Of a stretch of DNA of 64,000 nucleotides, positions 2,428 to 64,000 are shown one piece after another (the stretch's first letter is position 1; every line of letters begins with the position of its first letter). The position numbers and the translations under genes are program-made. This DNA is from Cloeon dipterum (taxonomy: Eukaryota; Arthropoda; Insecta; Ephemeroptera; Baetidae), in the NCBI RefSeq assembly GCF_949628265.1, contig NC_088790.1:28400545-28464544 (forward strand), given 5' to 3'. Under the pieces are notes generated by a model that saw nothing but the letters and a program-made list of their open reading frames with translations, made no database searches and was not told where the DNA came from.

Positions 2428-5302
2428 CTACGTGAAATTTTTCTTAGTCGTGGCTCTGATCCAACTAATGTAGGGATAAATCCAGGTGAAAGAGCCGGGA
2501 TAATCACTTGGGCAAGCCAATCTTTGAGAGGTGACGCCGATAATTTTGGCAGTGGACTCAGATGAGCTTGTGTAAAGAACAGGTGCACCTTCGTCACCCT
2601 GGAAATTTAATTTAACATTGTAAGAAATTATGCAGATGATGTAGTTACAAAATTCGTACAAAGCAAATTCCTTTGGTTCCAGAAGAGGTGCCCAAACATC
2701 CAGTGTTTCCTGGGTACGTCACGTAAACATCAATTGTGTTTGCATTGCACGTCGACTTTTTCACATTCGTCATTTCGACAACATTCAGTGTTACTGGAGT
2801 TGTGCCTGTCGTGGCTATAGTTTGTGCTGAAAAAAAAACACGATTTGTTCACTGTAAAAAAAGAATCAATCATTTTGCCTATAGTTTCAAATCCCGTAAA
2901 AATTAAGTAGAGAATTTTGCGATTGTTCTTTCATCTGCAAATTAATCTTAAGTGTTTTGTAAATTTTTAGACTCAGAATTAAAATTGAATTTAGAGGGAA
3001 GGTCTTTTTAAACAACACAAAAACAAATAATGGTTCTTTGAATGAAAAATACCAAGAACTAGGACGCATTAAAAAAAATTGAGTTTTCCTTGATATTTCA
3101 ATTTCACACATTTATTTGTTTTGTGTTACTCGAGAGTGCCTTCCCTGGTAAATGCAAGTAAATTATGGTTATTGCCAATTTATTATAATTTTGATAAGAA
3201 TGATAGAATTTGGAAAATGTAATTTCAAAAATATAGATCCAAAAATGTGTCCCAACCAAATCCGAGATAAATTAAAAAAGAAACAGTAATTTCTCTCTTT
3301 ACCATCAGTTTTAGGACCGAATCCCATGGTCGTGAGCGCGACATTATCTAACGCAGCAGTGGGTTTGACGAGGGAAAGTCTAGCGGTCCCAATAGTACCT
3401 GAAATATTAATGTAGTAAAATTGTAAACAATTTTGAAATTTTGCTTACCACTAAGTGTCAATGGTGTGCCAATCTTCAGCAGCGCGATGTCGTTGATCAT
3501 TAAATTAAGTCTAAAAGAGGGATGAATATAGGCCGTGGCTGTCGATGGGGTGTTTGTAGCTGCCAATGGATCCTCGAACGTTCCAGGAAAAACATTAATG
3601 GTAGAAACCCTTAAAATATTCAAAATTAAAAAAAAATAATACAAACGCAAGCAATTGTATGAAGATAATATTGACGCGATAGCTCAGCTCAGCTATAGGA
3701 TCCATTCAGAATAGATATTCAAATATATTTTGTAGCTGCACTATAATTTGGATATAAATTATTTAATGTGACTGTTAAATTAGCCTTCAGTTTGATCATC
3801 CCCTAAAACAACCCTTCCAATTAAAAATGTTTTACAATCCCCAAAATCATACAAAAGTTTGATCTGCTATTTTCATCATAGAAATAGTTAACTTTGATAT
3901 TAATTCTAAATTTGGTTAAACTTTAAAGAGAAATACTCACAAAACGACGCAGTGAGCGGCGGTCAGCGCCCAAGTGGACGACAATAATGCGCCACTGCAA
4001 AACCACCTGGGAACGCCAGCGGCAGTTTCGCTCACAATTAATACGTGGTAATTGTACTGCGGAAAAGTTTCCGTCGTGACTGCTGTTCCTCCCAATATTC
4101 TGCCATTTTGAGCCGTTCCATTGTGAAATTCAAACTGGTCCTCTTCACCCTCTTCACTTGGCTTTTCCGTTGCTGCATCAACTTCGTAATTCGTGGTGCT
4201 CTCTTCGTTTTCCATCGCTAAAATAGCCTCGATTTCTGTGTCTATTTAAATTTGAATTTTTTTTGTAATGGAAATAAATAATTTAAGTGGAATACTTGCA
4301 ATTGCTGTCTGTCAGCAGTTCTTCCAGTGTGTACTCTGTTGTGATGCTCGCTTCATGAAGGTTTCGTAGTTTTTCTGCATCTTCGTCTGAACGGTCGGTG
4401 ACCTTTGAATAAAAAATTTAATTTTAAAATAGGATATTTAAATAATGCATGGAGCACATCGCCACTGCTGTTGTTGTATTTGAATGCTGTATTATTAGAT
4501 TAGATTTTTATCCAAAATTTACTAAAAACAAATAGGACAAAGCTTTCTGTCGAGACCTGCATGTTTTGCTACGGAATTTCAAAACTGGCCCCTTGATTTG
4601 AAAATTTCCAACATTGACTTGTACTTTAATAATGATGAGAGATCGATTTTTAGTTTTCGACTGCAATATTTTCCACTGCAAGAAATCATGCCATTTTTCA
4701 ATTTTTCGGTTCTTTGCATCTCCAACCATCAGAATTGCTAAAACTATATACCCTCCGTTAAACACGTCTCAACTTCCCCTAACCACAGCTAAAAGGTTTG
4801 GGGTGCTTACACCATCCCCTTACATCCCCACTATGCATATTTGGAAAATTTAAAAATAAAAATCTGTAAGAAAATGTAAAATTCTTTCTAATTGGAGCAG
4901 CTTACAAATATGTTGATTATATTAAGCTGTTTTTTTAACGCCCCACGGGAGTGCGGCCAGCGGTCCAGAAAAGCAGGCCAAATCCGGTAAGCACCAGGAG
5001 TGCTGACCGGCGTAGCGCATAAAATACAAAACCCCTAGACCGGGCTGTGTGTTACAACATTTTATTTGAAAACAATAAAAAAGTCCTGTATAGATTAAAT
5101 CAAAATTAGGATGGTTGAGGTTAGAAATTCATATATTTTGGGAATGAATCTGACAAATTTTTGAGGAATCGGTGCCCAGGTCGATAAATATTTTTCAAAA
5201 CTAAACTATTGCACTTGTGAAAAAAATTGAGTGAAATAAACTTACTGCGGCAAAAGCTTGGGCGAGAAGAGCCAGCACCACGATCCATCGGGAGGTGCGC
5301 AT
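2428..5302 (-). CDS. S1 serine protease homolog, copy A (Ser195 to Glu)
   Basis: Seven exons join at 5302-5246, 4402-4300, 4241-3941, 3609-3449, 3398-3303, 2826-2660 and 2598-2428, giving 351 residues. Residues 1-19 form the signal peptide. An acidic Glu/Thr/Ser-rich propeptide with an NGT glycosylation site precedes the cleavage site NGR101/ILGG. The family catalytic triad is represented by His150 (TAAHC) and Asp194 (NDIALL), but the serine motif reads GDEGAP, with Glu298 where Ser195 belongs. Cys pairs expected for the fold (42-58, 168-182, 191-220) are present. A secreted inactive protease is inferred. Exon 2 ends in a GC rather than GT donor. AATAAA lies at 2362-2367 on the minus strand. 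Ligand and function are unknown. Confidence 0.88.
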
Positions 5303-5352
5303 AGTCTCGCCGGCAGCAACAGATTTTGAGATGGTCCTCTTCACGGCTGGGG

Positions 5353-5493
5353 TTTTATACATTTCCCCCCACTAAATCGATTTCAACAGATTTTTCGACA
5401 CCAAATCGAGTAGAGCAAAAAAGTAGGCGATCGGTTACTGATTCGCCTAAAAAATGCTGATTTGTGTGCTCCCATTCCATCCGCCGTCTAATT
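5353..5493 (-). promoter_or_regulatory. Promoter of copy A
   Basis: TATAAAA on the minus strand at 5353-5359; conserved upstream block at about 5445-5493, in the variant with GGGAGCACACAAA shared with B. Confidence 0.65.
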
Positions 5494-5536
5494 CATATGT
5501 TCATCCGAACCCATAAAATTCTAACGGTATTATCGA

Positions 5537-6482: not shown

Positions 6483-6618
6483 AATATTGATAAATAAAGG
6501 TTTCTGAAATGGGAATTGTTCGGAATTTACCAGGTTTTTTTTTAAAAAATATTTATTTTTCCACATTTTACTCACCAAGAATAAATATAAAAAAGCAAGC
6601 TTATAGAAGCAATAAATA

Positions 6619-9494
6619 CTACGTGAAATTTTTCCTAGTCGTGGCTCTGATCCAACTAATGTAGGGATAAATCCAGGTGAAAGAGCCGGGATAATCACTT
6701 GGGCAAGCCAACCTTTGAGAGGTGACGCCGATAATTTTGCCAGTGGTTTCAGATGAGCTTGTGTAAAGAACAGGTGCACCTTCGTCAGCCTGGAAATTTA
6801 ATTTAACATTGTAAGAAATTATGCAGATCATGTAGTTACAAAATTCGTACAAAGCAAATTCCTTTGGTTCCAGAAGAGGTTCCCAAACATCCAGTGTTTC
6901 CTGGGTACGTCACGTAAACATCAATTGTGTTTGCATTGCACGTCGACTTTTTCACATTCGTCATTTCGACAACATTCAGTGTTACTGGACTTGAGCCTGA
7001 CACGGGTATACCTTGTGCTGAAAAAAAAAACACGATTTGTTCACTGTAAAAAAGAATCAATCATTTTGCCTATAGTTTCAAATCCCGTAAAAATTAAGCA
7101 GAGAATTTTGCGATTGTTCTTTCACCTGCAATTTATTCTAAAGTATTTTGTATATTTTTAGACAGAATTAAAATTGAATTGAGAGGGAAGGTCTTTTTAA
7201 ACAACACAAAAACAAATAATGGTTCTTTGAATGAAAAATACCAAGAACTAGGACGCATTAAAAATAGAGTTTTCCTTGATATTTCAATTTCACACATTGA
7301 TTTGTTTGTGTTACTCGAGAATGCCTTCCCTGATAAATGTAAGTAAATTATGATTATTGCCAATTTATTATAATTTTGATTAGAATGATAGAATTTGGAA
7401 AATGTAATTTCAAAAATCATATTTAGATCCAAAAATGTGTCACAACCAAATCCAACATGTATTACAAAAGACACAATAATTTCTCTTTTTACCATCAGTT
7501 TTAGGACCGAATCCCATGGTCGTAAGCGCGACATTATCTAACGCAGCAGTGGGTTTGACGAGTGAAAGTCTAGCGGTTCCAATAGTACCTGAAATATTAA
7601 GGTAGTAAAATTATAAACAATTTTGTCATTTTGCTTACCACTAAGTGTCAATGGTGTGCTCAGCTTCAGCAGTGCGATGTCGTTGATCATTAAATTAAGT
7701 CTAAAAGCGGGATGAATATAGGCCGTGGCTGTCGGAGGGGTGCTCGTGACTGTTGAAGGATCCTCGAATTTTCCAGCATAAACAGTTATGGTAGAAACCC
7801 TTAAAATATTCAAAATTTGAAAAAAATTAATACAAACGCAAGCAACTGTATAAAGATAATATTGACGCGATAATATTCCACTCAGAATAGATATTCAAAT
7901 ATATTTTGTTGCTGCACTATAATTTGAATACTAATTATTTAATGTGACTGTTAAATTAGCCTTCAGTTTGATCATCCCCTAAAACAACCCTTCCAATTAA
8001 AAATGTTTTACAATCCCCAAAATAATACAAAAGTTTGATCTGCTATTTTCATCATAGAAATAGTTAACTTTGATATTAATTCTAAATTTGGTTAAACTTT
8101 AAGGAGAAATACTCACAATACGACGCAGTGTGCGGCGGTCAGCGCCCAAGTGGACGACAATAATGCGCCACCGCAAAACCACCTTTCGATGTCAGCGGCA
8201 GTTACGCTCACAATTAATACGTGGTAATTGTACTGCGGAAAAGTTTCCGACGTGACTGGCGTTCCTCCCAATATTCTGCCATTTTGAGCCGTTCCATTGT
8301 GAAATTCAAACTGGTCCTCTTCACCCTCTTCACTTGGCTTTTCTGTTGCCGCATCAACTTCGTAATTCGTGGTGCTCTCTTCGTTTTCCATCGCTAAAAG
8401 AGCCTCGATTTCTGTGTCTATTTAAATTTGAATTTTTTTTTGTAATGGAAATAAATAATTTTAGTGGAATACTTGCAATTGCTGTCTGTCAGCAGTTCTT
8501 CCAGTGTGTACTCTGTTGTGATGCTCGCTTCATGAAGGTTTCGTAGTTTTTCTGCATCTTCGTCTGAACGGTCGGTGACCTTTGAATAACAAATTTAATT
8601 TTAAAATAGGACATTTAAATAATGCATGGAGCACATCGCCACTGGTGTTGATGTATTTGAATGCTGTATTATTAGATTAGATTTTTATCCAAAATTTACT
8701 AAAAACAAATAGGACAAAGCTTTCATGCATGTTTTGCTACGGAATTTCGTGTTTCTCTTTCAAAACTGGCCCCTTAATTTGAACATTTCCAACATTGACT
8801 TGTACTTTAATAATGATGAGCGATCGATTTTTAGTTTTCGACTGCAATATTTTCCACTACAAGAAATTATGCCATTTTTCAATTGTTCGGTTCTTTGCCC
8901 CTCCAACCATCAGAATTGCTAAAACTATATACCCTCCGTTAAACACGTCTCAACTTCCCCTAACCACAGCTAAAAGGTTTGGGGTGCTTACACCATCCCC
9001 TTACATCCCCACTATGCATATTTGGAAAATTTAAAAATAAAAATCTCTAAGAAAATGAAAAATTCTTTCTAATTGGAGCAGCTTACAAATATGTTGATTA
9101 TATTAAGCTGTTTTTTTAACGCCCCACGGGAGTGCGGCCAGCGGTCCAGAAAAGCAGGCCAAATCCGGTAAGCACCAGGAGTGCTGACCGGCGTAGCGCA
9201 TAAAATACAAAACCCCTAGACCGGGCTGTGTGTTACAACATTTTATTTGAAAACAATAAAAAAGTCCTGTATAGATTAAATCAAAATTAGGATGGTTGAG
9301 GTTAGAAATTCATATATTTTGGGAATGAATCTGACAAATTTTTGAGGAATCGGTGCCCAGGTCGATAAATATAGAGAAAATATTTTTCAAAACTTAACTA
9401 TTGCACTTGTGAAAAAAATTGAGTGAAATAAACTTACTGCGGCAAAAGCTTGGGCGAGAAGAGCCAGCACCACGATCCATCGGGAGGTGCGCAT
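6619..9494 (-). CDS. S1 serine protease homolog, copy B (Ser195 to Glu)
   Basis: Exons are 9494-9438, 8579-8477, 8417-8117, 7799-7639, 7588-7493, 7017-6851 and 6789-6619, encoding 351 residues. Signal peptide MRTSRWIVVLALLAQAFAA is followed by the same acidic propeptide as A and cleavage site NGR101/ILGG. His150 and Asp194 are intact; the serine motif reads ADEGAP with Glu298, and Gly193 of the oxyanion hole is also changed to Ala. Exons and introns are very similar to A and C, so the duplication is recent. It shares the GC donor after exon 2. The poly(A) signal is at 6552-6557. A secreted catalytically dead homolog is inferred from these residues. Confidence 0.88.
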
Positions 9495-24602: not shown

Positions 24603-24957
24603 TTAAGTGAGCGTCTGCTTGGCCTTGGCTTGGACCGAGCAAATAAATAAACGGATGTGATAGAGCTGGGATATTGGCCGTGGAGCAGGCCAAATATTGC
24701 GAGTTGATTGCTTACATGTTTGGGCTGTTGTCGGTTGCGCTACCGCGCCGTCTCCCTAGAAATTAAATTTCCTTTCTGAATTTCCTGAAATATAATTAAA
24801 ATAGTATATCTTACAAAGCAAACGCATTTGGATCCGCTGATTCTGTGCTCAAACAACCAGTTTCTGGAGGGTAGTCCACAAAAACATCCGACTTGCATGT
24901 GGGCCCAGCCAAATACGTCATTTCAATTGACGATTACGTTCAGTGTCGGCAGAGTGG
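24603..24957 (-). pseudogene. Relic R1: decayed last two exons of an S1 homolog
   Basis: Exon 7-like sequence (24755-24603, 153 nt against 171 in intact genes) follows a TAG acceptor and reads GDGAVA at the serine motif. Exon 6-like sequence (24957-24815, 143 nt) keeps the Cys-rich part and donor but is shifted and shortened. No exons 1-5 were found nearby. A weak promoter-like block remains at 25389-25449. It belongs with R2 and R3 to a third lineage that has Gly or Glu at the serine position. Confidence 0.7.
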
Positions 24958-31959: not shown

Positions 31960-32109
31960 TTAAGTGAGCGTGCCTTGGATCCAGCTAATGAAGGAATACA
32001 GGCGATTGTTCTTGGATATTGACTGGAGCAGACAAATAGAATTAATAGCTAACAATTTCGGGCTGTTGTCGGTTGCATTCAGGTAAACGACAGGTCCACC
32101 GCCGTTTCC
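31960..32109 (-). pseudogene. Relic R2: last exon of an S1 homolog
   Basis: An open exon 7-like segment of 150 nt, shorter than the usual 171, reads GNGGGPVV at the serine motif and ends SWIQGTLT before a stop. The stretch that should hold the GCP motif, whose Cys pairs with Cys191, is altered. No exon 6 follows upstream; the flank at 32110-32150 is unrelated. It belongs to the same lineage as R1 and R3. Confidence 0.65.
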
Positions 32110-32534
32110 CTCATCTTCTGTAAACACTTCACGAGCTTTTTGAAATATATGAGATGAAAAGCGGGCGAAATAATTTTAAAAAACTGGTTGTCCCTAATAA
32201 TCTAAAGCAGACCAGAAAAGATTTATAATTTATCATTTTTGCAAAGTACAAGAATAATCTAAAATACTTTCATTAATAGAACGAAAAATGTAAAGAGCTA
32301 CCTCGCTACTTTTGACCTTTCTAGAACGTAGACAAAACTCAGAAGAAGAAAATTCAAGACTTAATTAAGCTGCATGTGTTGAAGTTATATATGAAAAGAA
32401 TCGATAACATTTTAATATAATATGTTTTTGAGGTATTAAAAAGAAAGGAAACGAATCAATCATTTAAATTAACAATTATTTATTTGGGTCCGACCTTCCA
32501 ATGCCACGAATAAATAATATTGATGTGCGCAGCA

Positions 32535-36098: not shown

Positions 36099-36206
36099 TT
36101 ACGTAAATGTTCTGAGAGTCTCGGCTTTGATCCAGGGAATGAAGGGAAAGATCCAAGTGAACGAGCTGGGTTCTTGACGTGGGCAGCCCACAATTTGAGA
36201 GTTGAT
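36099..36206 (-). pseudogene. Collapsed array copy: half of exon 7 joined to a promoter
   Basis: The end of exon 7 is well preserved (INSQIVGCPRQEPSSFTW through LRTFT and stop) but breaks off at about 36206, before the serine motif, and continues directly into 5' leader sequence and the TATA box. All sequence from the start codon to mid exon 7, about 2.5-3 kb, has been removed. The join falls in a short GATGT-like match, which suggests microhomology-mediated deletion. Confidence 0.75.
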
Positions 36207-43100: not shown

Positions 43101-45811
43101 TTGAAAATTATTACAATTATATTGGAATTAAGAAAATTAAATGCTGCCCATTTAGGAGTGTTCCAATTTTAGCCAATCAGTTTAATCCAGGGTAGTTTAA
43201 ACTTGACCTTTGCCAATAAAAGCACAAACAGACAACCACTGAGTGGCAAATTAAGAAGCAAGAGTGGTCGGCAGACAGATAGTTATTAGAGATTCGCGAA
43301 AGCGAGAAGCAGCAGCACTAACCATGGGTATGGGATATGGGACAGAGCAAACTTTCCGTAGACATCACGTCCAAACCAAAGAAGGGTGAGATGGCCATCG
43401 ATAGCACTGAGCTGGTCGAGAAGATCGTGGACAACAAAGAGAACCAAGCGCTGAATAGCACCACGCCCCACAACAGACACGTCCAGGATAACTGAAAGAC
43501 AATGGTGATGTAGAGAAGGGTGCAGCTCCAGTGGTCAATGCCAAGAGGGTGGAGAGGCCGTTCCCGTGGAGGAGCACCTAGGAGGAAGGCCTCCTCGTCC
43601 AGCCCCTTAAATAAGCCTTAAAAGGAAAGGTTCAGCTTCTGCTCCATAAGCTCCTCACGCAAGGACAAAAGGCTGTCGCTAAGGAAGAGCAGGAGGCAAC
43701 CCAGTAGACGGTGGCCGCCGCTGGAGAGGTCAAGAAGGACTTGAGGAGGCCCCCATGCAGGACGATGACGCCGAGAAAAGGCCTGAGGAGACCAAGGAGG
43801 CTGGCAGGGGTGACCGTGCAGCCCGCGACCCTCGTCGCAGTCACTGCCACCGCCGAAAACGCGGAAGAGAAGGCTGAGGAGACAATTGGGGTGGAATCCA
43901 AGAAGGCTGAGGTCATAGAGTTGACATCTGCCCCCGTCAACAAAGAGGCGTCAGAGCCACATGCCGAGCCCAAACTCGAGGAAAAGAAGGAAGAGGAGGA
44001 AGAGGACGCTGCCGCGCCTGAGGTCGCTCCTGTCAGGCCAGACGCACTGTTTAAGCCTGTGGAAGAGCCCACTATGCAGCTTTCGTCGTCGCCGTCACCA
44101 AGCCTGAGCCAAAGGCAAAGGTGGAAGAGGAGGCTGTCAACCCCGCCAAGGATGAGAGCGAAGAGAAGGGCAAGGAGGCTGCTCAGGAGCCCAAGGCAGC
44201 TGACACCGTAAAGACCGAGGAGTTGCGCAAGAAGCAGACAAAAATAAGAAAAAGTGGAATGAATACGATAGAAGTGCGCCGCCATTGAGGGAACCCTCAT
44301 ATCAGGCTTTAAATAATATAAATCGAAGATGAGAGAAGAAGAAAATTATAACATTCTTAATTTTGTAGCTTTTCTTTGTCAACTTATATTTTTTAATCTT
44401 TCACAAACACATACAAGGGGCCATGGTATATCCAAAGTTTTTTTATATTGTAAGCAAGAATTGCCTAGAAAATTGTTCATTAAATATTCAAAGTAGGGTG
44501 TACATGACATTTTTAAAGTTAAAGAATGCAACGTTTTTAATCTAATTTTTGAATTAAGTTTGCTCATTAGATTTCTACATTGACAAGCAAAATATTTATT
44601 GTAGAATCTGTCAAGATAAAATGTTTTTCTTCAATTTTTAAAATTAATGCTTGCAATATTTTTCAAAATCTAAAGTCTCCCAAAAAACACTCAAACTTAA
44701 ATAAAAATGAAATGTGTATTTTGATTTTGAACTGCTTACTTTAAATTTAATTTTATTTACTACCAAATATCCTATAAACAGGACCCATTTAATGCTGTTC
44801 CCCAAAACAGCTTAACTATTACTGATAACGCTCAAATTTTGTTTCAGGTGTGCCAAATAGCTCCAGAACATTCTGAGTGACTCGGACGAGGAAGTTCTCT
44901 CTAAAATTGGGAAGTATCGAGTCATCTGCTGCCTGGTCAATCCTCCACCTCATTTGCATCACCTTCCCTCTTTGGATGACGACTATTTCCGTCCCAATGA
45001 AGGCCACGACCCTGATAACGACCGCCATTCCATTGACCACCATCAAATTCAACATTCTTGTAAAAGCCAATATGTAAGTTTTTACTCAAATAAAATTAAA
45101 ATAAAAACTATAAAAAATTTTAATTTACAGTAAACCATATTTTTCCCAAAATTTTACAAATTTGCCCAGAAATATCGCCTGTCCAAAATTGGACAGTTTA
45201 TGGACAGTCATACCGAGAAGGATATCCTGGTGTACAGGTCTCGGTATATCCAAAAGATATCCGCCGGATATCCATTACGGATATCCGAATTGTATCCGTT
45301 AGCGGATATCTTTTCGTCACTTCTTAATTGTTTTTAGATCTGTTTTAGATGGGTATTCAATTTCATGCCAGTGTGGCCCAAAAATTAGACTATCCAAAAT
45401 CCGACAAATTTAGGACAGTTATACCGAAGGATATCCAAATGTACAGGCGTCCGTATATCCGAAAGCATATCCTTCGGATATCCATTACGGATATCCGACT
45501 ATCCGAAACGGATATCTTTCGGATATCTTTTCGCTATCTTTTTTCTTGGCGGGCTTGACCAGCTAATTTACTTTTCTAACGAAATTTCAGTATTTCTAAA
45601 ACTATAATCTCTTATTTCGTTAAAATTCAGTATATATTTTAAACTACAACAAAAATATAGCCATAATTTCAGAAACCTATGCATTAAGACAGTACCAAAT
45701 ATTTAATTTAGTTTGAAGCCTACATTAAAATAAAAATATTGGTTTACTCACTCTAGCAGAAGCTTGCGCGAGAAGAGCAAGCACAATAACAATCCACAGG
45801 GAGGTGCGCAT
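37169..45811 (-). CDS. S1 serine protease homolog, copy I (Ser195 to Pro), 6.7 kb first intron
   Basis: Exons are 45811-45752, 39058-38956, 38899-38629, 38573-38419, 38360-38268, 37775-37621 and 37339-37169, for 335 residues. The signal exon has one extra codon (MRTSLWIVIVLALLAQASAR). Cleavage site NGR91/ILGG, His141 and Asp185 are kept; Pro282 replaces Ser195 (ADPGGP). Intron 1 spans 39059-45751 and holds a miniature transposon and a 5.2 kb insert. Donor, acceptor and phase of that intron still match the other copies, so splicing is possible. It is also possible that exon 1 and exons 2-7 no longer work together. The poly(A) signal is at 37119-37124. Confidence 0.8.
39233..39674. mobile_element. 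TTAA-type miniature inverted-repeat element, copy 2
   Basis: Same termini and orientation as the copy at 13659, 442 bp, in intron 1 of gene I. TTAA is found at both ends. Confidence 0.75.
41165..41536 (+). promoter_or_regulatory. GC-rich promoter/5' leader-like block
   Basis: This stretch is markedly GC- and CpG-richer than the surrounding DNA, with CAG-rich and GCGCAC-type motifs, and leads into an ATG at 41537 followed by a consensus donor. It resembles the leader of a broadly expressed insect gene. No TATA box was identified. Confidence 0.35.
41537..45073 (+). CDS. Candidate multi-exon gene or captured exons, unrecognised
   Basis: Three plus-strand segments look exon-like. 41537-41599 reads MELTRCKFMECLWSTFLPIG and His, then GTAAGT. 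42826-42905 lies between TTTTTGCAG and GGTAAT and reads NVAALVDFDECLASGMLKWT and more. 44861-45073 is open for 71 codons, including LSDSDEEVLSKIGKYRV, then GTAAGT. I recognise no domain. Phases of the segments do not all fit a single chain, and the third also has an open frame on the minus strand, so it could be antisense. A further block at 42281-42346 is flanked by CAG and GTAAAA but has stops in all frames. These may be pieces of one or several genes, or chance. Confidence 0.25.
42894..42957 (+). repeat. Perfect 32 bp tandem duplication over a candidate splice donor
   Basis: Two exact consecutive units, 42894-42925 and 42926-42957, each containing TTAATTATGGTAATTTTATT. The duplication copies the presumed exon end and donor, so it is recent. 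Confidence 0.8.
43324..44290 (+). pseudogene. Intronless broken copy of a MARCKS/Akap200-like gene
   Basis: The start reads MGMGYGTEQ in one frame; a neighbouring frame gives GQSKLSVDITSKPKKGE, resembling the N-terminus of insect Akap200, an anchor protein that tethers protein kinase A to membrane and actin. Further on, a frame gives ERFSFCSISSSRKDKR, like the basic MARCKS effector domain, then a long Ala/Glu/Pro/Lys-rich tract (about 43711-44211). The coding sense shifts frame several times and stops occur, so it is not functional. Absence of introns suggests a retrocopy; no clear poly(A) tract is seen. The assignment rests on remembered family features, not a search. Confidence 0.55.
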
Positions 45812-47120: not shown

Positions 47121-47265
47121 TTATTCAGTGAGCATTCTGCTTGCCCGTGGCTTGTATGCAGCCAATGAAAGGATAAATGAAGGTGAGTATTGCAATTTTA
47201 TTGCTAACAATTTCGGACTAGTTGTCAGTAGCGCTCGGGTAAACGTCGGGTCCACTGCCTTCTCC
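47121..47265 (-). pseudogene. Relic R3: last exon of an S1 homolog
   Basis: An exon 7-like segment of about 145 nt reads GEGSGP at the serine motif. It has an in-frame stop shortly after, and the AG acceptor is lost. A promoter relic lies at 47728-47784. It is a sister of R1 and R2. Confidence 0.65.
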
Positions 47266-48245: not shown

Positions 48246-50706
48246 TTACGTAAATTTCTTAAAAGTCTTGTCTTGGATCCATTTAATGTAGGGATTAATC
48301 CAGGTGAATGAGCTGGGTTCTTGACGTGGGCAGCCCACAATTTGAGAGTTGATGCCAATAATTTTCCCTACGTCATCATTCGGGCCTGTGTGGAAAACAG
48401 GTCCGCCAGGGTCAACCTAAATAATCAAAAATTATTTTAGAACATATTCAGTATGTAATTTAAATTGTCAAATGGCATCTTAGCTCTGTGCAGATTTACT
48501 AGGGATGTATGCACATTTACTTTTGCAACGAAAAGATATTTATTAAAAATCCTTACCTTGCAGATCCCTTTAGTTCCGCCAGCGGTGCTCAAACAACCCG
48601 TGTTGGCTGGGTACGTCACAAAAATTCCTAAAGTTTGTTGGTTGCACGTCAACTTATTCATATTCTGCATGTTGACATGACTCAGTGTTGCCGCCGCGGG
48701 GTCGAAAACATCTAAAAATTGTAACAAATGTCATAAGAGGAAACCGAAAATCATTTTCTCAATAATAAATTTCTTCCTAATGAAATTAATTAAATCAATT
48801 GGGAGCTATATAAAAAAAGGTGCCGTCTGCATGAATAAGTAAATTTTTATAAAATTAGGGAGGTAGAGTCGAGTCTTTGGGTACGCAGTTTTTGCAATAT
48901 TTTACAGTTTTAAATTCGGGCAAAATGTAATTGTAAGGGAATAAAATTGACGAAAACATTCAATAATCATTAGCGTCCGTTTTCAGGCCACTAATATTCT
49001 CGAAATATTAAAAAACTCAGGCCGCAAAAATAGAAATTATGTCTTACTGTCATCAGCAAGACCGTATCCCAGTGTCGTAAACACCATATTGTCCAATGTT
49101 GCGGGTTTGGCGAGCGACAGCAGAGCTGGCGCGACAGATGCTGGAATTGCAATTATATTATAATTAAAACGTCTGCAGGAATGATTGAATTTTAACTCAC
49201 CACCAAGTGCTAACGGTGTCAATATATTAAGCAGAGCGATGTTATCTGTCAAGAAGTTGAGTCTAAAATTGGGATGAATTATGGCCTTGGCTCTGCTTGT
49301 TGGGGTTCCGGCCGTCGGATCCGCAATCTGCCCACCATAGACATTAATAGTAGTGGCCCTTTAAATTACGAAAATTAGATTCATAACATAAATTGGAATT
49401 ACATAATGTACTCACAGCGCGACGCAATGAGCGGCCGTCAACCCCCAAATGGACGACAACAATACACCACCGCAATTATTTAAAACAATCCCAGCAGCAT
49501 TCTTAGTTTGGACAAAGAGAATGGAATTTAGCGGCGCCACGAGTAAAGCAGCATCATCAATAAGTGTTCCTCCCAAAATTCTTTTGTCTTCCGTTCCGTT
49601 GTGATAGATCGGTTTCGCGGCTGTTGAAACAGCTCCAGAATTCGTGGTGCTCTCTAAGTTTGACAGGAAGATTTCGGTTTCTGTGTCTAAAAATTTAAAA
49701 AATTAAATATGGAATGTGAAATTAAATATAAAATAATAATTACAATTGGCATCTGCCACCAGTGCTTCCAGAGTGTATTCTTTTGTGACATCCTCTACAT
49801 CAAAGATGACTGCTTTTTTAGCATCTTCTTCCAAATCTTTATTCGTGACCTTTGAACAAAAAATTATATTTTTTTTAATTAATACGACTACACAGAATCA
49901 TATAATTTAGATGATCCGCTTTTTATACCAAAATATTCATCTTTTTTAATCTTTAGAATCGCAAAATCGTACTAGATGGCTAAATAAATCCATTAATTAT
50001 AACCAATTTTAATCATTCAGAAGAAATTTTTCAAATTCGCTAATTTCCCATGGATACAGAAAGTTTTCCTTGTTGCCAATTTTTAGACTTTTTAATTTAA
50101 TAAATAAGCGTATTTTTCTATCAAATCAAATTTTCCTCGATAGGAAAACGCCATGACACATTAAACTGAATGCACAAATTTTTACATTTTAAGGGGTACA
50201 GTTTTAATTGAACGTGCCGAAGCCCTCTAAATTTGAAAGAAACTTTTGCATCAGAGATTTCTAAAATTTATGGAATTAGATAAAAACTACCGCTTCAGTT
50301 TCTATCTACACTTCAGGTGTGTAAAATTGCTAGTTTATAATTTTTCACCCGATTGAAAAAAAATTGTTCTTGACGTGATCACGAAAATAGAGATACATTA
50401 GTCAATGTAAATTAAAAAGGTAACCATTTAAAATCTAAAAAGAGGTTTAATTACTGTGAAAATGAACGTTTAAACATTTTTGTGAGCTTAAAAAAGCATA
50501 AAATAATATTCAGTTAAAAGCCAGCATATATATATCTTTAAACTACAACTCACTAATGTTGCCAAGTTTCAAAAAAATAATGCAAATTCAAAATATGTAA
50601 TAAAATTTGGTTTCAAACCTGTAATTTAATTTAAAAAAGGTTTACTCACTCCAGCAGAAGCTAGCGCGAAAAGAGCAAGCACGGCAAGCCACAAGGAGTT
50701 ACGCAT
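48246..50706 (-). CDS. S1 serine protease homolog, copy J (Asp102 to Asn, Ser195 to Pro)
   Basis: Exons are 50706-50650, 49849-49744, 49686-49416, 49358-49201, 49140-49048, 48711-48557 and 48416-48246, for 336 residues. Signal peptide MRNSLWLAVLALFALASAG; exon 2 has one extra codon. Cleavage at EDKR90/ILGG and His141 are kept. The Asp102 motif reads LTDNIALL instead of the usual NDIALL, so Asn184 occupies the Asp102 position. The serine motif is VDPGGP with Pro283. Two of three triad residues are therefore gone, which makes this the clearest non-enzyme. The splice sites and frame are intact. The poly(A) signal is at 48190-48195. Confidence 0.86.
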
Positions 50707-52086: not shown

Positions 52087-54474
52087 TCACGTCAATTTTT
52101 TAAAAGTCTTGGCTTGGATCCAGGGAATGTAGGGAAAAATCCAGGTGAACGAGCTGGGTTGTTGACTTGGGCAGCCAATATATTGAGAGTTGATGCCAAT
52201 AATTTTGGCAGTGATATCCTCTGGAGATGTGTGAAAAACCGGTCCACCAGGGTCAGCCTAAATATTGAAACATTAGTTTTAGAACATATTAAAATGAAAT
52301 TTGAATTGATTAATGGCATCTTACAATTAGGTAAAAGGAGCAAAATAAATTTAAATAACAGGTTATCTAACTATAAAGTTCAGGCCTCGCATCAGCAGCA
52401 AAAAACTGATACCACCATCATTCATTGCTTTATTCCTTCACAAGCTCAAAATGCCAATATATTTGCAAAGGATAAGTTATTTATAGAAATCTTACATAGC
52501 AGATTCCTTTTTTTCCGGTCTCGGTGCTCAAACATCCCGTGTTTCCTGGGTACGTCACAAAAACTCCAATTGCCGGTGCGTTGCACGATGCCTTTTTCAT
52601 ATTCCGCATTTCCACAACAGTCAGTACTGGCACCACGTCCAAAACGGTTGCTAAAATTTGTAAAAAAATATCATAATAGTGGAAATATTTGAAAATCAAT
52701 AATAAGTTACCGTCACCAGGTGGACCGAATCCCATTGTCGTAAACACAATATTGTCCAACGCAGCGGTGGGTTTGACGGTTGACAGAAGAGCTGTCCCGA
52801 CAGTTCCTAGAATTGCAAATAAAATCTAAATGCATTCAGGAATTATTTAATTAATTTTTGCTCACCACTAAGCGCAAACGGCGTGTCTAATCTGAGCAGA
52901 GCAATGTCATTTGTCAAGAAGTTCAGTCTAAAATCGGGATGAATTATCGCCTTGGCTCCACTTTTTACAAGGGGTAAGATCGAAATCTCAGTCTCCCCAG
53001 CAATGACGGTAATATCTTTTGCCCTTAAAATAATGAAAATTAGATACATATGCCATGTTATTGGAATCACAGATTATGCTCACAGCGCGACGCAATGAGC
53101 GGCTGTCAACACCCAAACGGACGACAAAATTACACCCCCGCATTCCCTTATAACACCCCCAGCAGCATTCAAGGCTCGAACAAATGCATAGGCAGTGTAC
53201 GGCGGCACGAATGTAGCAGCCGTAAGAGGTTTTCCTCCCAAAATTCTTCCCTTTCCATTAGTTGCGTTTTTAATTTCATTGATCGGCGTCGCAGTTGTTG
53301 AATCAACTCCAGAATTCGTGATGCTCTCTAACTTCGAGAGAAAGATTTCGGTTTCTGTGTCTAAAAAATTTAAAGCTTAAATAATATGTGTAATAAACTA
53401 AAATAATAATTACAATTGGCTTCTGCCAGCAGTGCTTCCAGAGTGAAATCCTCTACATCAAGGTTGCCTGTTTTTTCAGCATCTTCTTTCAGACATTTTG
53501 AGACCTTTGAACCAAAATTTATTCTTTTTTTCCATTAAAGGAAATTTTGAACTTAATCACTCTCATGGCCTTTATTTCGATTCTCCTAATGAAATTGTCA
53601 AACTTGTTGAAAACAGGACAAAAAGGATTTCCAAAATAATTTTTTATGTAATGTTTTAAGGATTATGTTTTGAAAAACAGTTCAACTTACTCGGGGAAAC
53701 AGTCTAAATATTGTTAGTTGCTAAAATATCATTAAATACCAAATTATGTCCCAAAAAAATGTTTTTAACCGATTCATCAATCCTAACCCCGATCTAAAGA
53801 ATTTCTGGACCAATTAATTTACTTTGCTAACAAAATCATGACCTTTAAAGAGGAATGATACCGCAAAAGCCTGGAAAATGCTCGTTGTCAATGTATAAAC
53901 TCGTCCCCTAAGATTCAGTTAAAGCCTAAATTGACCTAAGAAGCAGTGTAATTTTTTGAGAAAATTGGCTGGAAAGTTCCCGTGCTTTTCAAATGGTAAT
54001 GGCTGTCTCCTTACTTGAAATCCGATTTAATTTCAAAACCAAGAGTTTCCCCAACAAGTGGCATTCATCGTTGGACAGATCTCGACGAGAGGAATCGGAA
54101 TGTGCCAAGAAAATATGTTCAAGCACTGCAAATTTTGGAGAAAATGGGCAAAATTTGAATTTTTACTGTAGGAAGGTCCTTTTTTATTATTGCAAATTGT
54201 TGATCGATCAATTGTTTATGGCATCCAACAATTCAAATAATTTTCAATTGTTGCCCAGTATCATTCCACTTTAAAACATTTTAAAGGTCTCTCAGCAAAA
54301 CATTTTTTACTTTTTTTAAACTCATAGATAACTAAAAAGTAATACCAAGTGTCTAAGAAAATACCAAATAAAATTTGGTTTGAAACCTGTATTTTGATTA
54401 GGAAAAGGTTTACTCACTCTAGCAGAAGCCTGCGCAAGAATAGCAAGCACAACAATCCACAGGGAGGAACGCAT
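52087..54474 (-). CDS. S1 serine protease homolog, copy K (Ser195 to Pro)
   Basis: Exons are 54474-54418, 53504-53414, 53360-53084, 53023-52866, 52806-52711, 52650-52496 and 52257-52087, for 334 residues. Signal peptide MRSSLWIVVLAILAQASAR. Exon 2 lacks four codons (the TKEY of its relatives), and exon 3 has two more than most, ending NGKGR88/ILGG. His138 and Asp181 are intact; Pro281 replaces Ser195 (ADPGGP). The stop is TGA, whereas most relatives use TAA. Intron 1 carries a miniature transposon. The poly(A) signal is at 52028-52033. Confidence 0.86.
53845..54274. mobile_element. TTAA-type miniature inverted-repeat element, copy 3
   Basis: Same family as 13659 and 39233 but in the opposite orientation, 430 bp, in intron 1 of gene K. 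TTAA is found at both ends. Confidence 0.75.
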
Positions 54475-57916: not shown

Positions 57917-58039
57917 TTTTTTTTTAATAGTTTCCGTGACATGTTTATCTTTACTGGAGAAGATTCTAGTGGTTCGTTAGTGGCTCGCATTGTTTACAGT
58001 ATAGCAGCGGGCAATTACATTACACGAAAATCTAATTGG

Positions 58040-58444: not shown

Positions 58445-58797
58445 ATTGAGTTAATTATTACAAAATATTGTTCATTACCAATATGAATTGTATTTACTAT
58501 TTACGGAAAATCTTCATGAACTGTTTAAATTTGAACAAATAGATGAAAGGGCAATAAAAAAAATACCAGTTTTCCCTACATAATTAAATTTTAAAAATAT
58601 TTGCATTAAACCGAAAAAAGACTTAAATTCAATTCTCAATTAAATTTAGTTGGAAGACCAAGTGGAAAAAAGCAACAACATTTTGTTCTTAATGTATTAA
58701 AAAGAAAGGAAACAAATCAATCATTTCAATTAAAAATTATTTATTAGAGTCCCATCTTCCAACACCAAGAATAAATAATAATGATGTCCACGTAGAA

Positions 58798-61700
58798 TTA
58801 CGTAAATGTTTTTAGAGTCGTGGAGTGGATCCAGGAAATGTAGGGATAAATCCAGGTGAATGAGCTGGGTTGTTGACGTGGGCAGCCCACTATTTGAGAG
58901 TTGATTCCAATAACTTTACCACTGATTTCAGCTGGAGATGTGTAAAAAACAGGTCCACCTTCATCAGCCTAAAATGAATTATTTTATAACTTTTTAAATA
59001 TGAAATTTAAATTGTCTAATGGCATCTTAGCTCTGTGCAGATTTAGTGGAGACGAATGGCTAAATAGTGAAATTTTAAGAGCCAAATACTTGACTTTACT
59101 TATTGCTATGTTCCTTAAAAAAAAGTTGCAAGCTCAAAATGCCATTATTTTAGCAATTAAGATGAGATATTCATAAAAATCTTACAAAGCAGACTCCTTT
59201 AGTTCCGGAAGCGGTGTTCAAACATCCCGTGTTTCCAGGGTACGTCACAAAAATTCCAATTGTCTGTGCGTTGCACGTCTCCTTATTCATATTCTGCATA
59301 TCGATAACATTCAGTGTTGACATCGCGTCCACAAATGATACTAAAAATCGCATAAAATAACATAAGTGCAAACGGTAAATAATCATGCACTCTTGATGAA
59401 ATTCCATTCAAATTAAATTATTTGGGAACTGTAAATAAGGTAACGTTAGCATGACGAGGAAATTTGGATAAAATTCGGGAGGTTGAGGCTAGTCTTTGCG
59501 TGTGCAGTTTTTGCAATTTTTTACGGTTAGAACCATAATTAGTAAATTTTTAAAAATACCGCTTTGTATTTTAGTTTATTTGATCTCCAAAATCTCGCAA
59601 ACAAATAATGATATTCCCTTTTTCGCATTTTGGTTCTACGTCAAATTTAACGTTTACTCGGAAGAAAATCAATTTGAGAAATATTTATTTTAATATTACG
59701 GATATAAGTCTCATATAAAATCTCCGTCAAAAATTTAGTAAAGCAGCGAAGATATGGCATGGATACTCTAATTAGCAGAGAAGATAGCAGAACAACGGTC
59801 AAAATTACGATTTATTAATTTCTTTTGTTCCGGGAACGGTGTTCAAACATATCCCAAATTTCCTGGGTAAGTCACACAAAATACCTCTTGCCTGTGCGTT
59901 GTACGGTGCATTATTCAGAGTCTGCGTATCGGAAACAGTCTTTACTGGCGGGGGTTGCACCACGACCGTAACAGTCGCTAAAAATTGTACAAAATAACAG
60001 TTGAAACAGTAGATGGTCCAACAATAAAATATCCCCTAATGAAATTCTCAATTGAGATTGTTGAAAAAAAATAATGACCTTGAAAAAAAAGTAAATTTTG
60101 ATAAAATTATACATAGATAGGTTATGAGACGAGTGCAGGTTTTGCAATTTTTTACAGTTTGAACCGAAGACTTGACATATAGAGACGTAAAATTCCCATA
60201 AATCCTTTTTTTAATTTTTGATTTAATTTTTGTATCACGCCATTCATTTCTGTGGAATTTGCGTAGCGAGGAATTTTAAAGAAAAAAATAACTGCTGATG
60301 AAAAAAATGAGTTTAAATTATGAGTAGCATGCTCCATCTATTTTACAAAAAAAAATCTGTTTACAGTCGAGTAACAAACTTTTTTAGACTACAAACAATG
60401 CAAAATCGATGAAAATACTTTTTCAAATGAAATAAAATAAAATACCTCCAATATAATCCCACAAAAAAAAGATGGAAATTGTAACTTACCGTCATCAGCA
60501 CGACCGAATCCTAGTGTCGTAAACACAATATTGTCCAACGCTGCGGTGGGTTTGACGGTTGACAGACGAGCTGTCCCGACAGTTCCTAGAATCGCAAGTA
60601 TAATTAAAATGCAAGCAGGAACAATTAAAATTAACTTGTTCTCACCACTAAGTGTAAGCGGTGTGTCTAAATTAAGCAGAGCGATATCATTTATATCGTA
60701 GTTCAATCTAAAATTGGGATGAATTATAGCCGTGGCTGTGCTTGATGATGTGGCCATATTCAGCGGATTCACAATTGTCCCAGCAAAGACAGTAATATCT
60801 GTGGCCCTTTAAATAACGAAAATTAGAAACATGACATATTATGGAATTACAGATTATAATCACAGCGCGACGCAGTGAGCGGCAGTCAACACCCAAACGG
60901 ACGACAAAATTACACCCCCGCATTCTTCTATAACAACCCCACCAGCATTCAAGGCTTGAATAAAGACATAGGCAGTGAATGGCGACACGAACGTAGCAGC
61001 CGTAAGAGGTATTCCTCCCAAAATTCTTCCGTTGTCATCCGTTCCGTTGTGATAGATCGGTTTCGCAGTTGTTGGATTAACTCCAGAATTCGTGTTGTTC
61101 TCTAATTTCGACAGGAAGGTTTCTGTTTCTGTGTCTATAAATTTAAAAAATTAAATATACATCATGTGAAATTCAATAAAATAATAATTACAATTGGCAT
61201 CTGCTACCGTAGCTTCCAGAGTGTGTTCTTTTGTGACAACCTCTAAATCTACGTTGCCTGTTTTTTTAGCATCTTCTTTCAGACATTTTGAGACCTTTGA
61301 ACCAAAAAATATTTTATTTTTTATATATTAAAGGGGAAATTTTGAAATTTCATGCTATCATGGCCTTTACTTCGAATATCCTAATGAAAATGACAAACGT
61401 TTTGAAAACATGTCAAAAATCCCAAGTTCCAAAATTAATTTCGTTTTTTAAACTTATTTTTTTAGAAAATAATATTTATTTAGAAATTTTTGAAGTCCAG
61501 CCTATTCAAAAGAAGGGTGCATATTCAGCTGCAGCTTTCATTAGGCTGTAAGGCGTAAGGGCGTTTAAAAAACAGTCCAACTTATTAGGGGCAACAGAGT
61601 TTAAATAAAGTTTAAAAAATACTATTGTATCATAAAAATTTTAATTTTTTTGTAATTTAAAAAAAATGCCTATATATAACGTTAAAAAAGGTCCTAAAAG

Positions 61701-61803
61701 AAAATTTGCAGTGAATCTGTATTTAAAATAAAAATGGTTTACTCACTCTAGCAGAAGCCTGCGCAAGAATAGCAAGCACAACAATCCACTGGGAGGAACG
61801 CAT
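58798..61803 (-). CDS. S1 serine protease homolog, copy M (Ser195 to Glu)
   Basis: Exons are 61803-61747, 61294-61192, 61134-60864, 60806-60646, 60585-60490, 59340-59186 and 58968-58798, for 337 residues. Signal peptide MRSSQWIVVLAILAQASAR; cleavage at NGR90/ILGG. His140 and Asp184 are retained and ADEGGP puts Glu284 at the Ser195 position. The exon 3 donor is GTGATT where its relatives have GTGAGT, a loss of the conserved +5 G that could weaken splicing. Intron 5 holds a decayed second copy of exon 6 (59977-59817). The poly(A) signal is at 58740-58745. Confidence 0.85.
59817..59977 (-). pseudogene. Decayed extra exon 6 inside intron 5 of gene M
   Basis: A TTTTTAG acceptor is followed by sequence clearly derived from exon 6 (TVSDTQTLNNAPYNAQ matches the region NVIDMQNMNKETCNAQ). 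The Cys168 codon has become Tyr. A later frame change turns the GNTGC region into KFGIC, and the donor after the exon is lost. If included in mRNA it would break the reading frame. Confidence 0.7.
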
Positions 61804-61861
61804 GGTGAAGCCGGCAGCAGCAGCAAGATTGCAGATATGTTGCACCTTTTATTTGCCGGGG

Positions 61862-61963
61862 TTTATATATACTGCTCAGAGAGTCCCTTCCAAATCGAGC
61901 AGCACAATGAGTAATTGCAAAACAAAAATGCTGTTTTTAATGCTTCCTTTTATACCTGTCGAT
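61862..61963 (-). promoter_or_regulatory. Promoter of copy M
   Basis: TATATAAA on the minus strand at 61862-61869; upstream block at about 61921-61963 is shortened, with GGAAGC instead of GGGAGC. Confidence 0.6.
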
Positions 61964-62533
61964 AATTTGTGGTTTTCATGACCTTTGTACCTTTACTGTA
62001 GAAGATTCGAGTCGTTCATTTTAGTGGCCCGCATCTTTTAGCAGCGGGCAAATCACTTTAAACGACTATCTGATTGGGAGTAATGTTGGAGGTAGAGCGT
62101 TTTAGTTTTTGGCCAAATTAACCACTGGATTTTTGTTGCCTTTCTCGCTGCGATAACCACCAACATTATGGTGGAGATTTATTTTATTTTATTCTATATT
62201 TAATGAATTTTAGGAGTTTTAAAAAAGCCCTAAATACTTTTTTGCTCAACGTGCCTGACATTTGGTTTTTCTGTAATAGGCTTCTTCAACGAACTGTTCG
62301 AAATTAGAGGTGATTGAAAAATTTGTCGTGCAGGAAAGATGAAAAATCGGATTTTTTCAAGTTAGAACAATAATTTTAAAATAAAAGTATTTGCATTAGA
62401 CCGATATTTCTTGCACAAAAGACAAAAAACCTGAAGAGTTGCATGCGTCAAAGAAGCAACAACATTTTGACACAAGGTTCTTGATGTATTTTAAAAAGAA
62501 AGGAAACAGGTCAAACATTTGAATTAAAAATTA
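61964..62533. other. Spacer between M and N
   Basis: No gene. A diverged form of the common upstream region covers about 61964-62250; the rest is AT-rich. Confidence 0.4.
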
Positions 62534-62589
62534 TTTATTTGGGTCGCACCTTCCAATACCAACAATAAATAACGATGATTTACGCAGCA

Positions 62590-64000
62590 TTACATAAAAT
62601 TTATAAAAGTCTTGGAATGGATCCAGGGAATGTAGGGATAAATCCAGGTGAATGAGCTGGGTTGTTGACGTGGGCAGCCCAAGATTTGAGAGTTGATGCC
62701 AATAACTTTCCCGAAGTCATCAGTTGGAGATTCGTAAAAAACAGGTCCGCCAGGGTCAGCCTAAATATTCAAAGATTATTTTAGAACATATGAAGTATGA
62801 ACTTGAAATTGTCGAATGCCATCTTAGCTCTGTGCAGATTTACCGAGCTAAATAGATAACTTTTAAGAGCGAAAAAATTTAAATATAAAATTATCTATTT
62901 GTAAAGCGACTAATGCGGCCCCTTAAGACCTCGCACCAGCAGTAAAAAAATTATAACTGAGAATTTTGAATCAGTATAATTGAAGCAAACATCCGACTTT
63001 ACTAATTGCTGTTATTTTACAAAAAAAAAAAACACTAGAGCTCAAAATGACATTATTGTAGCAATGAATATGAGATATTTATAAAAATGCTTACATTGCA
63101 GATTCCTTTAGTTCCGCCAGCGGTTTTCAAACATCCCGTGTTTCCAGGGTACAACACGTAAATTGGTGCTGTCTGTTGGTTGCACGTTACTCTATTCATA
63201 TTCTGCATATCGACAACATTCAGTGTTGACCCAATGCTCGCGAAAGGTGCTAAAAATTGAATAAAATAATTAAAGTCTCTGAAATTAAAAACATATTAAA
63301 TTGAATCAATTGAGAACCATTGTGCTTAACTAAAAGAAGAGGAAAATTTGAAGAAAATTAGGGAGGAGTCTTTGGGTATGCAGTTATTAAAATTTTTCCA
63401 GTTGGAATCCGAGATTAACTAGCGAAAATCTAAAAATCCCCTTTTTTTGTTTTATGACCTTCGATATCTCGCAAACTATCCATCCATTTAGATCTACATC
63501 TTCAAAGTGATTTATTCAAGTGATCAAATTTAACGTTAAGTAAAAAATAATTAATTTTGAGAAATATTTCATAAAATTAAACTAATGAAAGTATTTTAAA
63601 AGTTAATACAGATAAAAGTTGTTCTCAGTTGAAAATTAGTTTCAGCATTGAAGATCTTGTTTAAAGTCGAATAAAAAACTACAAACAATGTAAAATAGAT
63701 AAAATAATTTTTCAAGTAAAAAATCCTCCAAATTGGTCGACAAAAAATATCTAAATCAAAACTTACCATCCGTAGCAGGACCGAATCCCAGTGTCGTAAA
63801 AATAAAATTGTCCAACGCAATGGTGGGTCTGACGAGCGACAGAGAAGCTTTCCCGACAGTTGCTAGAATTGCAAGTATAATAATTAAAATGCAAGCAGAG
63901 GAGCCATTCAAATTTTACTCACCACTAAATGTAAGCGCTGTGTCTAAACTAAGCAGAGCGATGTCATTTAATAAGCAGTTCTGTCTAAAACTGGGATGAA
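62590..64000 (-). CDS. S1 serine protease homolog, copy N (Ser195 to Pro), partial
   Basis: Exons 7 (62760-62590), 6 (63249-63095), 5 (63862-63767) and the end of exon 4 (from 63923 to the window edge) are visible; exons 1-3 lie beyond it. The Asp102 motif NDIALL is present, and the serine motif reads ADPGGP. The C terminus is KTFINFM rather than KTFT. Exon 6 and the intron beyond it resemble gene E far more closely than they resemble neighbour M. The poly(A) signal is at 62534-62539. Confidence 0.83.

What the first reader, a model, noticed from the sequence alone, without database searches (positions are those of the whole stretch)
2428..64000. Tandem array of at least 13 S1 homologs, none with a catalytic serine
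Seen: all thirteen last exons lack Ser195, while reading frame, signal peptide, splice sites, Arg/Ile zymogen site and Cys residues are kept. Known: single-Ser serine protease homologs (often Ser to Gly) act in insect immunity and melanisation. Inference: selection maintains a large family of secreted, activatable non-enzymes here, perhaps as binding proteins, decoys or structural secretions. A whole array fixed for serine loss is unusual.
Basis: partly seen in the sequence, partly recalled or inferred. Interest (0 to 1): 0.88.

Follow-up and report, generated by a model that had tools for sequence, protein, structure and literature searches.

The report
Mayfly family of inactive protease genes
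In the pond mayfly Cloeon dipterum, a family of some thirty secreted protease look-alikes has lost the cutting residue but keeps its on-switch, and some of its surface loops evolve fast, which suggests the proteins bind things instead of cutting them.

Summary
The window (Cloeon dipterum, Ephemeroptera) has 12 complete S1 genes, one cut by its right edge, and one first exon. All 13 last exons lack Ser195 (8 Pro, 5 Glu). Window models G05-G10 equal deposited 'brachyurin-like' predictions letter for letter.

The array is one of three in this genome (contigs C5, C1, C2; 33 models plus two broken remnants). None of 40 sequences tabulated has Ser195, including one from Neocloeon triangulifer. The family is one clade (100/100) near active brachyurin-like enzymes, so the serine was most simply lost once, before the two genera split; the arrays grew from an already dead ancestor.

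Retained: signal peptide, Arg/Lys15, Asp/Glu194, the Cys. Changed: residues 195, 190, 216, mostly 193, and His57 in the C1 and C2 arrays. Codon models of the C5 array reject neutrality (omega 0.71) and show positive selection, also exon by exon, two thirds of the sites in three loops.

Best reading: secreted, cleavage-switched binding proteins, perhaps in the nymphal gut. The kind is known: insect serine protease homologs, scabies-mite SMIPP-S. The clip-domain immune analogy fits poorly. No expression data were available.

The parts
62590..64000 (-). G01: exons 4 (part) to 7; rest lies right of the window. Codon 195 at 62754-62752 = Pro
   Evidence: full model equals deposited P0008
58798..61803 (-). 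G02: complete SPH gene; codon 195 at 58962-58960 = Glu
59885..59977 (-). G02 optional 93-base exon between exons 5 and 6, lengthening the loop near residue 147 (numbering approximate); present in deposited 'isoform X2' P0009
55073..57729 (-). G03: complete SPH gene, intron 2 absent (exons 2 and 3 fused in frame); residue 195 = Glu
52087..54474 (-). G04: complete SPH gene; residue 195 = Pro
48246..50706 (-). G05: complete SPH gene; residue 195 = Pro, residue 102 = Asn
   Evidence: equals P0005
37169..45811 (-). G06: complete SPH gene with a 6.7-kb intron 1; residue 195 = Pro
   Evidence: equals P0007
32535..35282 (-). G07: complete SPH gene; residue 195 = Pro; protein used for the structure model
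   Evidence: equals P0001
25808..29243 (-). G08: complete SPH gene; residue 195 = Pro
   Evidence: equals P0004
20320..23458 (-). G09: complete SPH gene; residue 195 = Pro
   Evidence: equals P0002
15677..19731 (-). G10: complete SPH gene; residue 195 = Pro
   Evidence: equals P0012
11119..14394 (-). G11: complete SPH gene, GC-AG intron 2; residue 195 = Glu
6619..9494 (-). G12: complete SPH gene, GC-AG intron 2; residue 195 = Glu
2428..5302 (-). G13: complete SPH gene, GC-AG intron 2; codon 195 at 2592-2590 = Glu
1402..1458 (-). G14 exon 1 (signal peptide); the other six exons lie left of the window (C5:28400445-28398286), residue 195 = Asp
47146..47265 (-). fragment of a last exon (relic copy, one stop)
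36102..36206 (-). fragment of a last exon (3' part only)
31963..32112 (-). orphan last-exon-like stretch (EGNGGGP)
24700..24927 (-). fragments like exons 6 and 7 of a relic copy (exon 7 match weak, E 0.014)

Best explanation
The array belongs to a baetid-mayfly family of secreted S1 pseudoproteases. SHOWN: the family is one clade; no member read has Ser195; the zymogen latch, fold and Cys are kept; S1-pocket positions are changed; some loop sites fit positive selection. INFERRED from the tree: an ancestor related to active brachyurin-like enzymes lost Ser195 once, before Cloeon and Neocloeon split, and duplication made three arrays in C. dipterum. INFERRED mechanism: the protein is secreted as a pro-form, a trypsin-like enzyme cuts after Arg/Lys15, the new Ile16 end pairs with Asp194 as in active proteases, and this sets the loop surface into a binding-competent shape without catalysis. 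That surface binds a partner that varies, so copies diverge at the loops. Most likely site: the gut lumen of the feeding nymph (a guess of about 45%, by ancestry and by analogy with beetle gut SPHs). The partner is not known.
Against: No expression, proteomic or binding data. Gut location rests on analogy; mature pI values spread from 4.4 to 9.3, unlike the acidic active brachyurins L026-L028 (4.2-4.5). Site models on tandem paralogs can be inflated by gene conversion; per-exon trees reduce this but do not remove it, and my null simulations had no recombination. Subclade c5b alone does not reject omega=1 (2dlnL 2.6). The third loop stretch (229-236) lies at an exon junction where alignment is less sure. 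The latch could be kept for folding or secretion and not as a switch. Loss of Ser195 happened elsewhere in the tree too (at least five changes between Ser and not-Ser over all 57 rows).
Confidence: 0.6

Rival explanations
1. Haemolymph immune cofactors: like clip-domain SPHs they are cleaved and help activate prophenoloxidase or mark microbes. (This and the next two name a site or partner and so overlap with the best reading.)
For: Cleavage-dependent non-catalytic SPHs exist in mosquitoes (PMC6901238, abstract); the latch is kept; loop sites diversify.
Against: No clip domain in the 28 family sequences among the 33 scanned; no conserved Cys pattern in the 16 C5 propeptides aligned; [quoted passage not shown]
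Confidence: 0.2
2. Decoys for dietary protease inhibitors: algal or cyanobacterial inhibitors bind the dead copies and spare the active digestive enzymes.
For: In Tribolium ten SPH genes rose more than 5-fold under dietary inhibitors (as reported in PMC11172050, passages); the positively selected 37-, 70s- and 145-type loops (numbering approximate) rim the cleft (placing by general knowledge of S1 folds).
Against: Canonical inhibitors need an open S1 pocket (general knowledge); here 190 is bulky and 216 is not Gly in the parsed sequences, and 193 is Gly in only 12 of 40.
Confidence: 0.15
3. Reproductive or structural secretions: proteins of the female tract, egg coat or male glands in this brooding species, diversifying by sexual or maternal-embryo conflict.
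For: Positive selection at loop sites and copy turnover are typical of such proteins (general knowledge); C. dipterum broods its embryos (recalled).
Against: Nothing in the sequence points to these tissues; Neocloeon, which has at least three members, does not brood (recalled).
Confidence: 0.15
4. Mere decay: the copies are dying or selectively neutral leftovers of a duplicated enzyme.
For: Relic exons in the window, a chimeric copy K03 and a model with stops, A4, outside it; omega=1 not rejected in c5b alone.
Against: Open frames with splice signals in 12 of 12 complete window genes; omega=1 rejected in c5, c5a, a1 and b2; conserved latch and Cys.
Confidence: 0.04
5. Still enzymes by other chemistry, for example Thr195 or an acid at 195 with His57.
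For: A beetle S195T homolog has low activity (PMC11172050, passage); C5 copies keep His57 except G15.
Against: Thr195 copies B1, B2, B4, B5 also have Gln57; S1 pocket and residue 193 changed; Pro195 cannot act as nucleophile.
Confidence: 0.03

Closest known systems
Insect serine protease homologs without regulatory domains (e.g. 102 SPHs of Tenebrio molitor; PMC11172050, passages and section 2.6)
   Same: Secreted S1A fold, trypsin-type processing site, loss at 195 and often His57 to Gln, many copies; 95 beetle SPH transcripts were predominantly expressed in feeding stages
   Different: Here one clade without any active member read, in three arrays; Pro195 is common here and is not in the beetle paper's list of replacements; propeptide of about 50-80 residues, with NxS/T sites in 32 of 34 models; tissue unknown
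SMIPP-S, scabies mite inactivated S1 protease paralogs (PMC4930577, PMC3398963, passages; structure 3h7t)
   Different: Named as paralogs of mite group 3 allergen homologs; parasite; inhibit human complement; Cloeon is a free-living grazer (recalled). Shared descent was not tested
Brachyurins / insect collagenases (1azz, 1hyl)
   Same: Best solved-sequence match is crab collagenase 1azz; Hypoderma collagenase 1hyl heads the fold list, tied with others; nearest active paralogs are of this type
   Different: No Ser195, altered S1 pocket; the public name 'brachyurin-like' therefore misleads
Clip-domain SPHs (CLIPA, PPAF-II)
   Same: Cleavage-activated non-enzymes (abstract)
   Different: No clip domain found here
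Hepatocyte growth factor beta chain (recalled)
   Same: Works alike in principle: a dead S1 domain switched to binding form by zymogen cleavage
   Different: Not a relative beyond the S1 fold; no kringles found here (only Trypsin-type models)

Membership tests
S1A serine protease homolog (SPH) | S1 (chymotrypsin) fold / Pfam Trypsin | tested here: met
S1A serine protease homolog (SPH) | at least one residue of His57-Asp102-Ser195 replaced | tested here: met
   Ser195 replaced in 40 of 40; His57 replaced in 20 of 40; Asp102 in 3 of 40
S1A serine protease homolog (SPH) | no proteolytic activity in assay | not testable with these tools
   needs recombinant protein
Brachyurin-type S1 enzyme | complete catalytic triad | tested here: not met
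Brachyurin-type S1 enzyme | sequence kinship with brachyurin-like enzymes | tested here: met
   trees place L026-L028 (with P0016) nearest among the active genes sampled; 1azz best solved-sequence match
SMIPP-S | descent from the mite group 3 lineage | not tested
   SMIPP-S sequences were not put in the tree; only fold similarity to 3h7t
SMIPP-S | complement inhibition | not testable with these tools
   biochemical
Clip-domain SPH | N-terminal clip domain | tested here: not met
   only Trypsin-type models matched; no conserved Cys pattern in 16 C5 propeptides

The most novel reading that the evidence does not exclude
The three arrays encode a germline repertoire of cleavage-gated binders on an S1 scaffold: catalysis was lost once, the protease on-switch was kept, and rim loops (about residues 115-123, 154-166 and 229-236 of G07) diversify by positive selection, copy turnover and, in G02 and K02, an additional exon in the third loop, so that the insect carries a panel of binders against a changing set of dietary or microbial molecules.
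Probability: 0.13. Interest if true: 0.8.

Novelty: new member of a known kind. Interest (0 to 1): 0.48.

Why it matters
In one well-studied beetle nearly half of the S1 sequences are predicted to be dead (125 of 269, PMC11172050), and the role of such homologs is, in that paper's words, still poorly understood. Here is a clade in which catalysis was most simply lost once, the zymogen switch residues are kept in every copy tabulated, and the changing sites are mapped. That makes the question testable: cut the recombinant protein, ask what it then binds, and ask whether the fast loops set the choice. It also shows that at least 23 deposited proteins of this assembly, named 'brachyurin-like', 'trypsin-like' or after a mite allergen, should not be counted as proteases.

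Tried and rejected
Independent losses of Ser in each copy of the array: rejected for one ancestral loss. From Ala codons each of Pro, Glu, Asp, Thr and Gly is one base change away (by inspection), which fits Ala195 as an early state. Whether absence of a return to Ser is itself selected cannot be told; by a rough count of my own twelve random changes would miss Ser about one time in nine.

Positive selection in the propeptide: not significant (M8a/M8 2dlnL 2.5 on 16 rows). Metal binding by His57 plus Glu195: considered, no evidence. Tissue from papers: the Cloeon genome paper (find: no 'protease', 'peptidase' or 'trypsin' in the main text), the Cloeon development paper (find: none) and the gill regeneration paper (find: no protease terms) gave nothing; the C. 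viridulum transcriptome paper mentions 'serine protease' once without detail. No description of this family was seen in the listings. Supplementary files were not open to me.

Column 216 in the automatic alignment fell in a gap, and its column 226 is likely out of register; both were re-read by motif, where B9 and L002 could not be parsed.

Rows dropped: K03 (chimeric, with stops) and B3 (orphan last exon, Thr195) from then on; A4 (two in-frame stops in my model) also from trees and codon models; A7 from the C1 codon set; K04 from the C5 codon set; K02 and K04 from the propeptide set. The 5' exons of A1, A7 and B7-B9 are unsettled. L001, L004 and L029 were modelled but not used further (L001 and L029 incomplete at the 5' end, L004 the same gene as L003). 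The protein searches scored only the 8000 and 7999 candidates sharing most words, so the count of Neocloeon members is a lower bound.
Full report
WHAT IS THERE. The window is C5:28400545-28464544 of a 190-Mb genome in 10 contigs. My model G07 equals, over all 337 residues, a deposited Cloeon dipterum protein named 'brachyurin-like', so the host is this mayfly (lineage). On the minus strand lie 12 complete genes, G13 (2428-5302) to G02 (58798-61803), part of G01 at the right edge and exon 1 of G14 near the left edge. The common plan is seven exons: signal peptide; propeptide in exon 2 and the first part of exon 3, which runs on to just after His57; exon 4 with Asp102; exons 5 and 6; and a last exon that starts at residue 193. 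The intron phases are shared by the window genes. Departures: G03 lacks intron 2, G11-G13 have a GC-AG intron 2, and G02 can take up one more 93-base exon.

SERINE 195. In the 13 last exons residue 195 is Pro (8) or Glu (5); the neighbours Asp194 and Gly196 stay.

BEYOND THE WINDOW. A search of the genome with the last two exons led to three arrays: C5 28.393-28.488 Mb (18 models and the chimeric pseudogene K03), C1 4.04-4.07 Mb (7 models, A4 with stops) and C2 5.92-5.96 Mb (8 models and the orphan exon B3). Of 40 sequences tabulated (33 from this genome; 6 C. dipterum proteins on other, shorter contigs, which I take to be another assembly; 1 from Neocloeon triangulifer) 0 has Ser195: Ala 15, Pro 11, Glu 6, Thr 4, and Gly, Asp, Asn, Ile once each. 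His57 is kept in 20, Gln in 19, Arg in one; Asp102 in 37. In contrast Arg/Lys15 is found in 40 of 40, Asp/Glu194 in 40 of 40 (38 Asp), and the Cys at 42, 58, 191 and 220 in 40 of 40. Two more Neocloeon proteins found later have Ala195 and Lys195.

THE SITE IS CHANGED MORE WIDELY THAN THE SERINE. Residue 193, Gly in 8 of 8 active paralogs, is Gly in 11 of 34; residue 190 is Ile, Phe, Val, Trp or Leu in 34 of 34 against Ser, Thr or Ala in 8 of 8; residue 216 is not Gly in 33 of 33 parsed, against Gly in 7 of 7 parsed active ones. So substrate-like binding in S1 is unlikely. Numbering away from the anchor residues is approximate, and no model coordinates were at hand to inspect the pocket.

ORIGIN. 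In two trees, WAG+R4 and a mixture model, the family is one clade (94; 100/100 with 42 family rows), with active brachyurin-like genes L026-L028 (GDSGGP) and the unnamed protein P0016 among its nearest relatives in the set. The long stem (1.0-1.6 changes per column), long comparison branches and 18 of 54 inner branches drawn open make the exact sister uncertain. The Neocloeon protein P0038 pairs with the copy A7 (100/99). Inside the family residue 195 changed at least 12 times and is Ser in no row. The simplest account is one loss before the two genera split; thirteen losses are not needed. Loss of Ser195 as such is not rare: over all 57 rows at least five changes between Ser and not-Ser are needed, and another Neocloeon protein, P0107 (Thr195), lies outside the family. 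My sample of other S1 genes of this genome is small (eight with Ser195 and one, L005, with Gly195), so this is not a full survey.

SELECTION. My codon code reproduces IQ-TREE's likelihood for the one-ratio model (-7319.575). For 17 C5 copies omega is 0.71, and omega=1 is rejected (2dlnL 32). Models with a positively selected class win clearly: M1a/M2a 88.6, M8a/M8 82.6, with about 17% of sites at omega 2.5. In 30 simulations without that class the largest M1a/M2a statistic was 4.88; these had no recombination. The other sets tested (c5a, c5b, C1 without A4 and A7, C2) give M8a/M8 of 16.2, 78.0, 19.2 and 22.4; c5b alone does not reject omega=1 (2.6). Split by exon, each with its own tree to blunt recombination, the four parts give 30.1, 14.8, 35.3 and 11.1. 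Of 21 sites above 0.9 posterior (empirical Bayes at point estimates), 14 lie in three stretches of G07 that I marked after seeing the list: 115-123, 154-166 and 229-236; by anchor residues these correspond to the 37-, 70s- and 145-type loops around the cleft. Posteriors at residues 15-19 and at Asp194 are 0.0; at residue 195 it is 0.25. The propeptide shows no significant positive selection (2.5). The third stretch crosses an exon junction and its alignment is less sure; the other exon parts stand without it.

HOW IT MOST LIKELY WORKS. Fold and zymogen latch are held, catalysis and the usual S1 pocket are gone, loop sites adapt. The economical reading is a secreted pro-protein that a trypsin-like enzyme cuts after residue 15, after which the domain binds a partner through loops. 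That the latch is a switch is inferred from its conservation while residues a few positions away drift. Location in the nymphal gut is a guess by ancestry (brachyurins are digestive, general knowledge) and by the beetle case, where 95 SPH transcripts without regulatory domains were mainly expressed in feeding stages (PMC11172050, passages). Cleavage-dependent non-enzymatic S1 proteins are established for clip-SPHs (PMC6901238, abstract). The rivals that name a site or partner overlap with this reading, so the odds given do not add up to one.

AGAINST WHAT IS KNOWN. It is an SPH family by sequence criteria. In scale and kind it resembles the inactive S1 families of scabies mites, where 16 inactive paralogs were reported and five tested ones inhibited complement (PMC4930577 and PMC3398963, passages); shared descent was not tested. 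In T. molitor 125 of 269 S1 sequences are SPHs and the replacements listed at 195 do not include Pro. Hence the finding is a new member of a known kind; the parts worth attention are a large clade without any active member read, the kept latch and the loop selection.

WHAT IS NOT SHOWN. Expression, secretion, cleavage, binding and place of action. The deposited predictions may rest on RNA-seq but I did not see the evidence. The deposited 'isoform X2' P0009 starts like K03's first two exons and goes on like G02; whether that is a real transcript or a prediction error is open.

Noticed in passing
window 40328-45554 (intron 1 of G06): A 5.2-kb element in three copies 99-100% identical (here, C3:5.93 Mb, C3:7.24 Mb). 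Its inside (about 43257-44482) matches, mostly at 71-79%, in order and in exon-sized pieces, the minus strand of C1:32446484-32462467; stretches near both ends bear inverted GGATATCC-type repeats. It looks like a young mobile element that carries a spliced host-gene copy.; two open stretches had no Pfam family over its cut-off.
   Followed up: partly
window 39232-39675: A dispersed repeat of about 440 bases; 38 further matches at 88-95% identity were listed genome-wide, capped by the search (2344 candidates, 40 scored).
   Followed up: no
window 59885-59977; C5:28479651-28479559: Additional in-frame exon in G02 and its relative in K02, lengthening the loop near residue 147; deposited proteins P0009 and P0010 contain it.
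   Followed up: partly
P0009 against K03 (C5:28477576-28477134) and G02: A deposited isoform joins exons that look like 1-2 of K03 to 3-7 of G02 about 15 kb away: prediction error or a transcript across genes.
   Followed up: no
C1 and C2 arrays; C5 array: The 15 tabulated C1/C2 copies have Gln57, C5 copies His57 (Arg in G15). Gln57 is also in the three Neocloeon family members, so the history of residue 57 (two losses or one return) is unsettled.
   Followed up: partly
L005 (C1:27617297-27620776): Another S1 gene outside the family reads GDGGGP (Ser195 to Gly) with His57 kept: a separate SPH.
   Followed up: no
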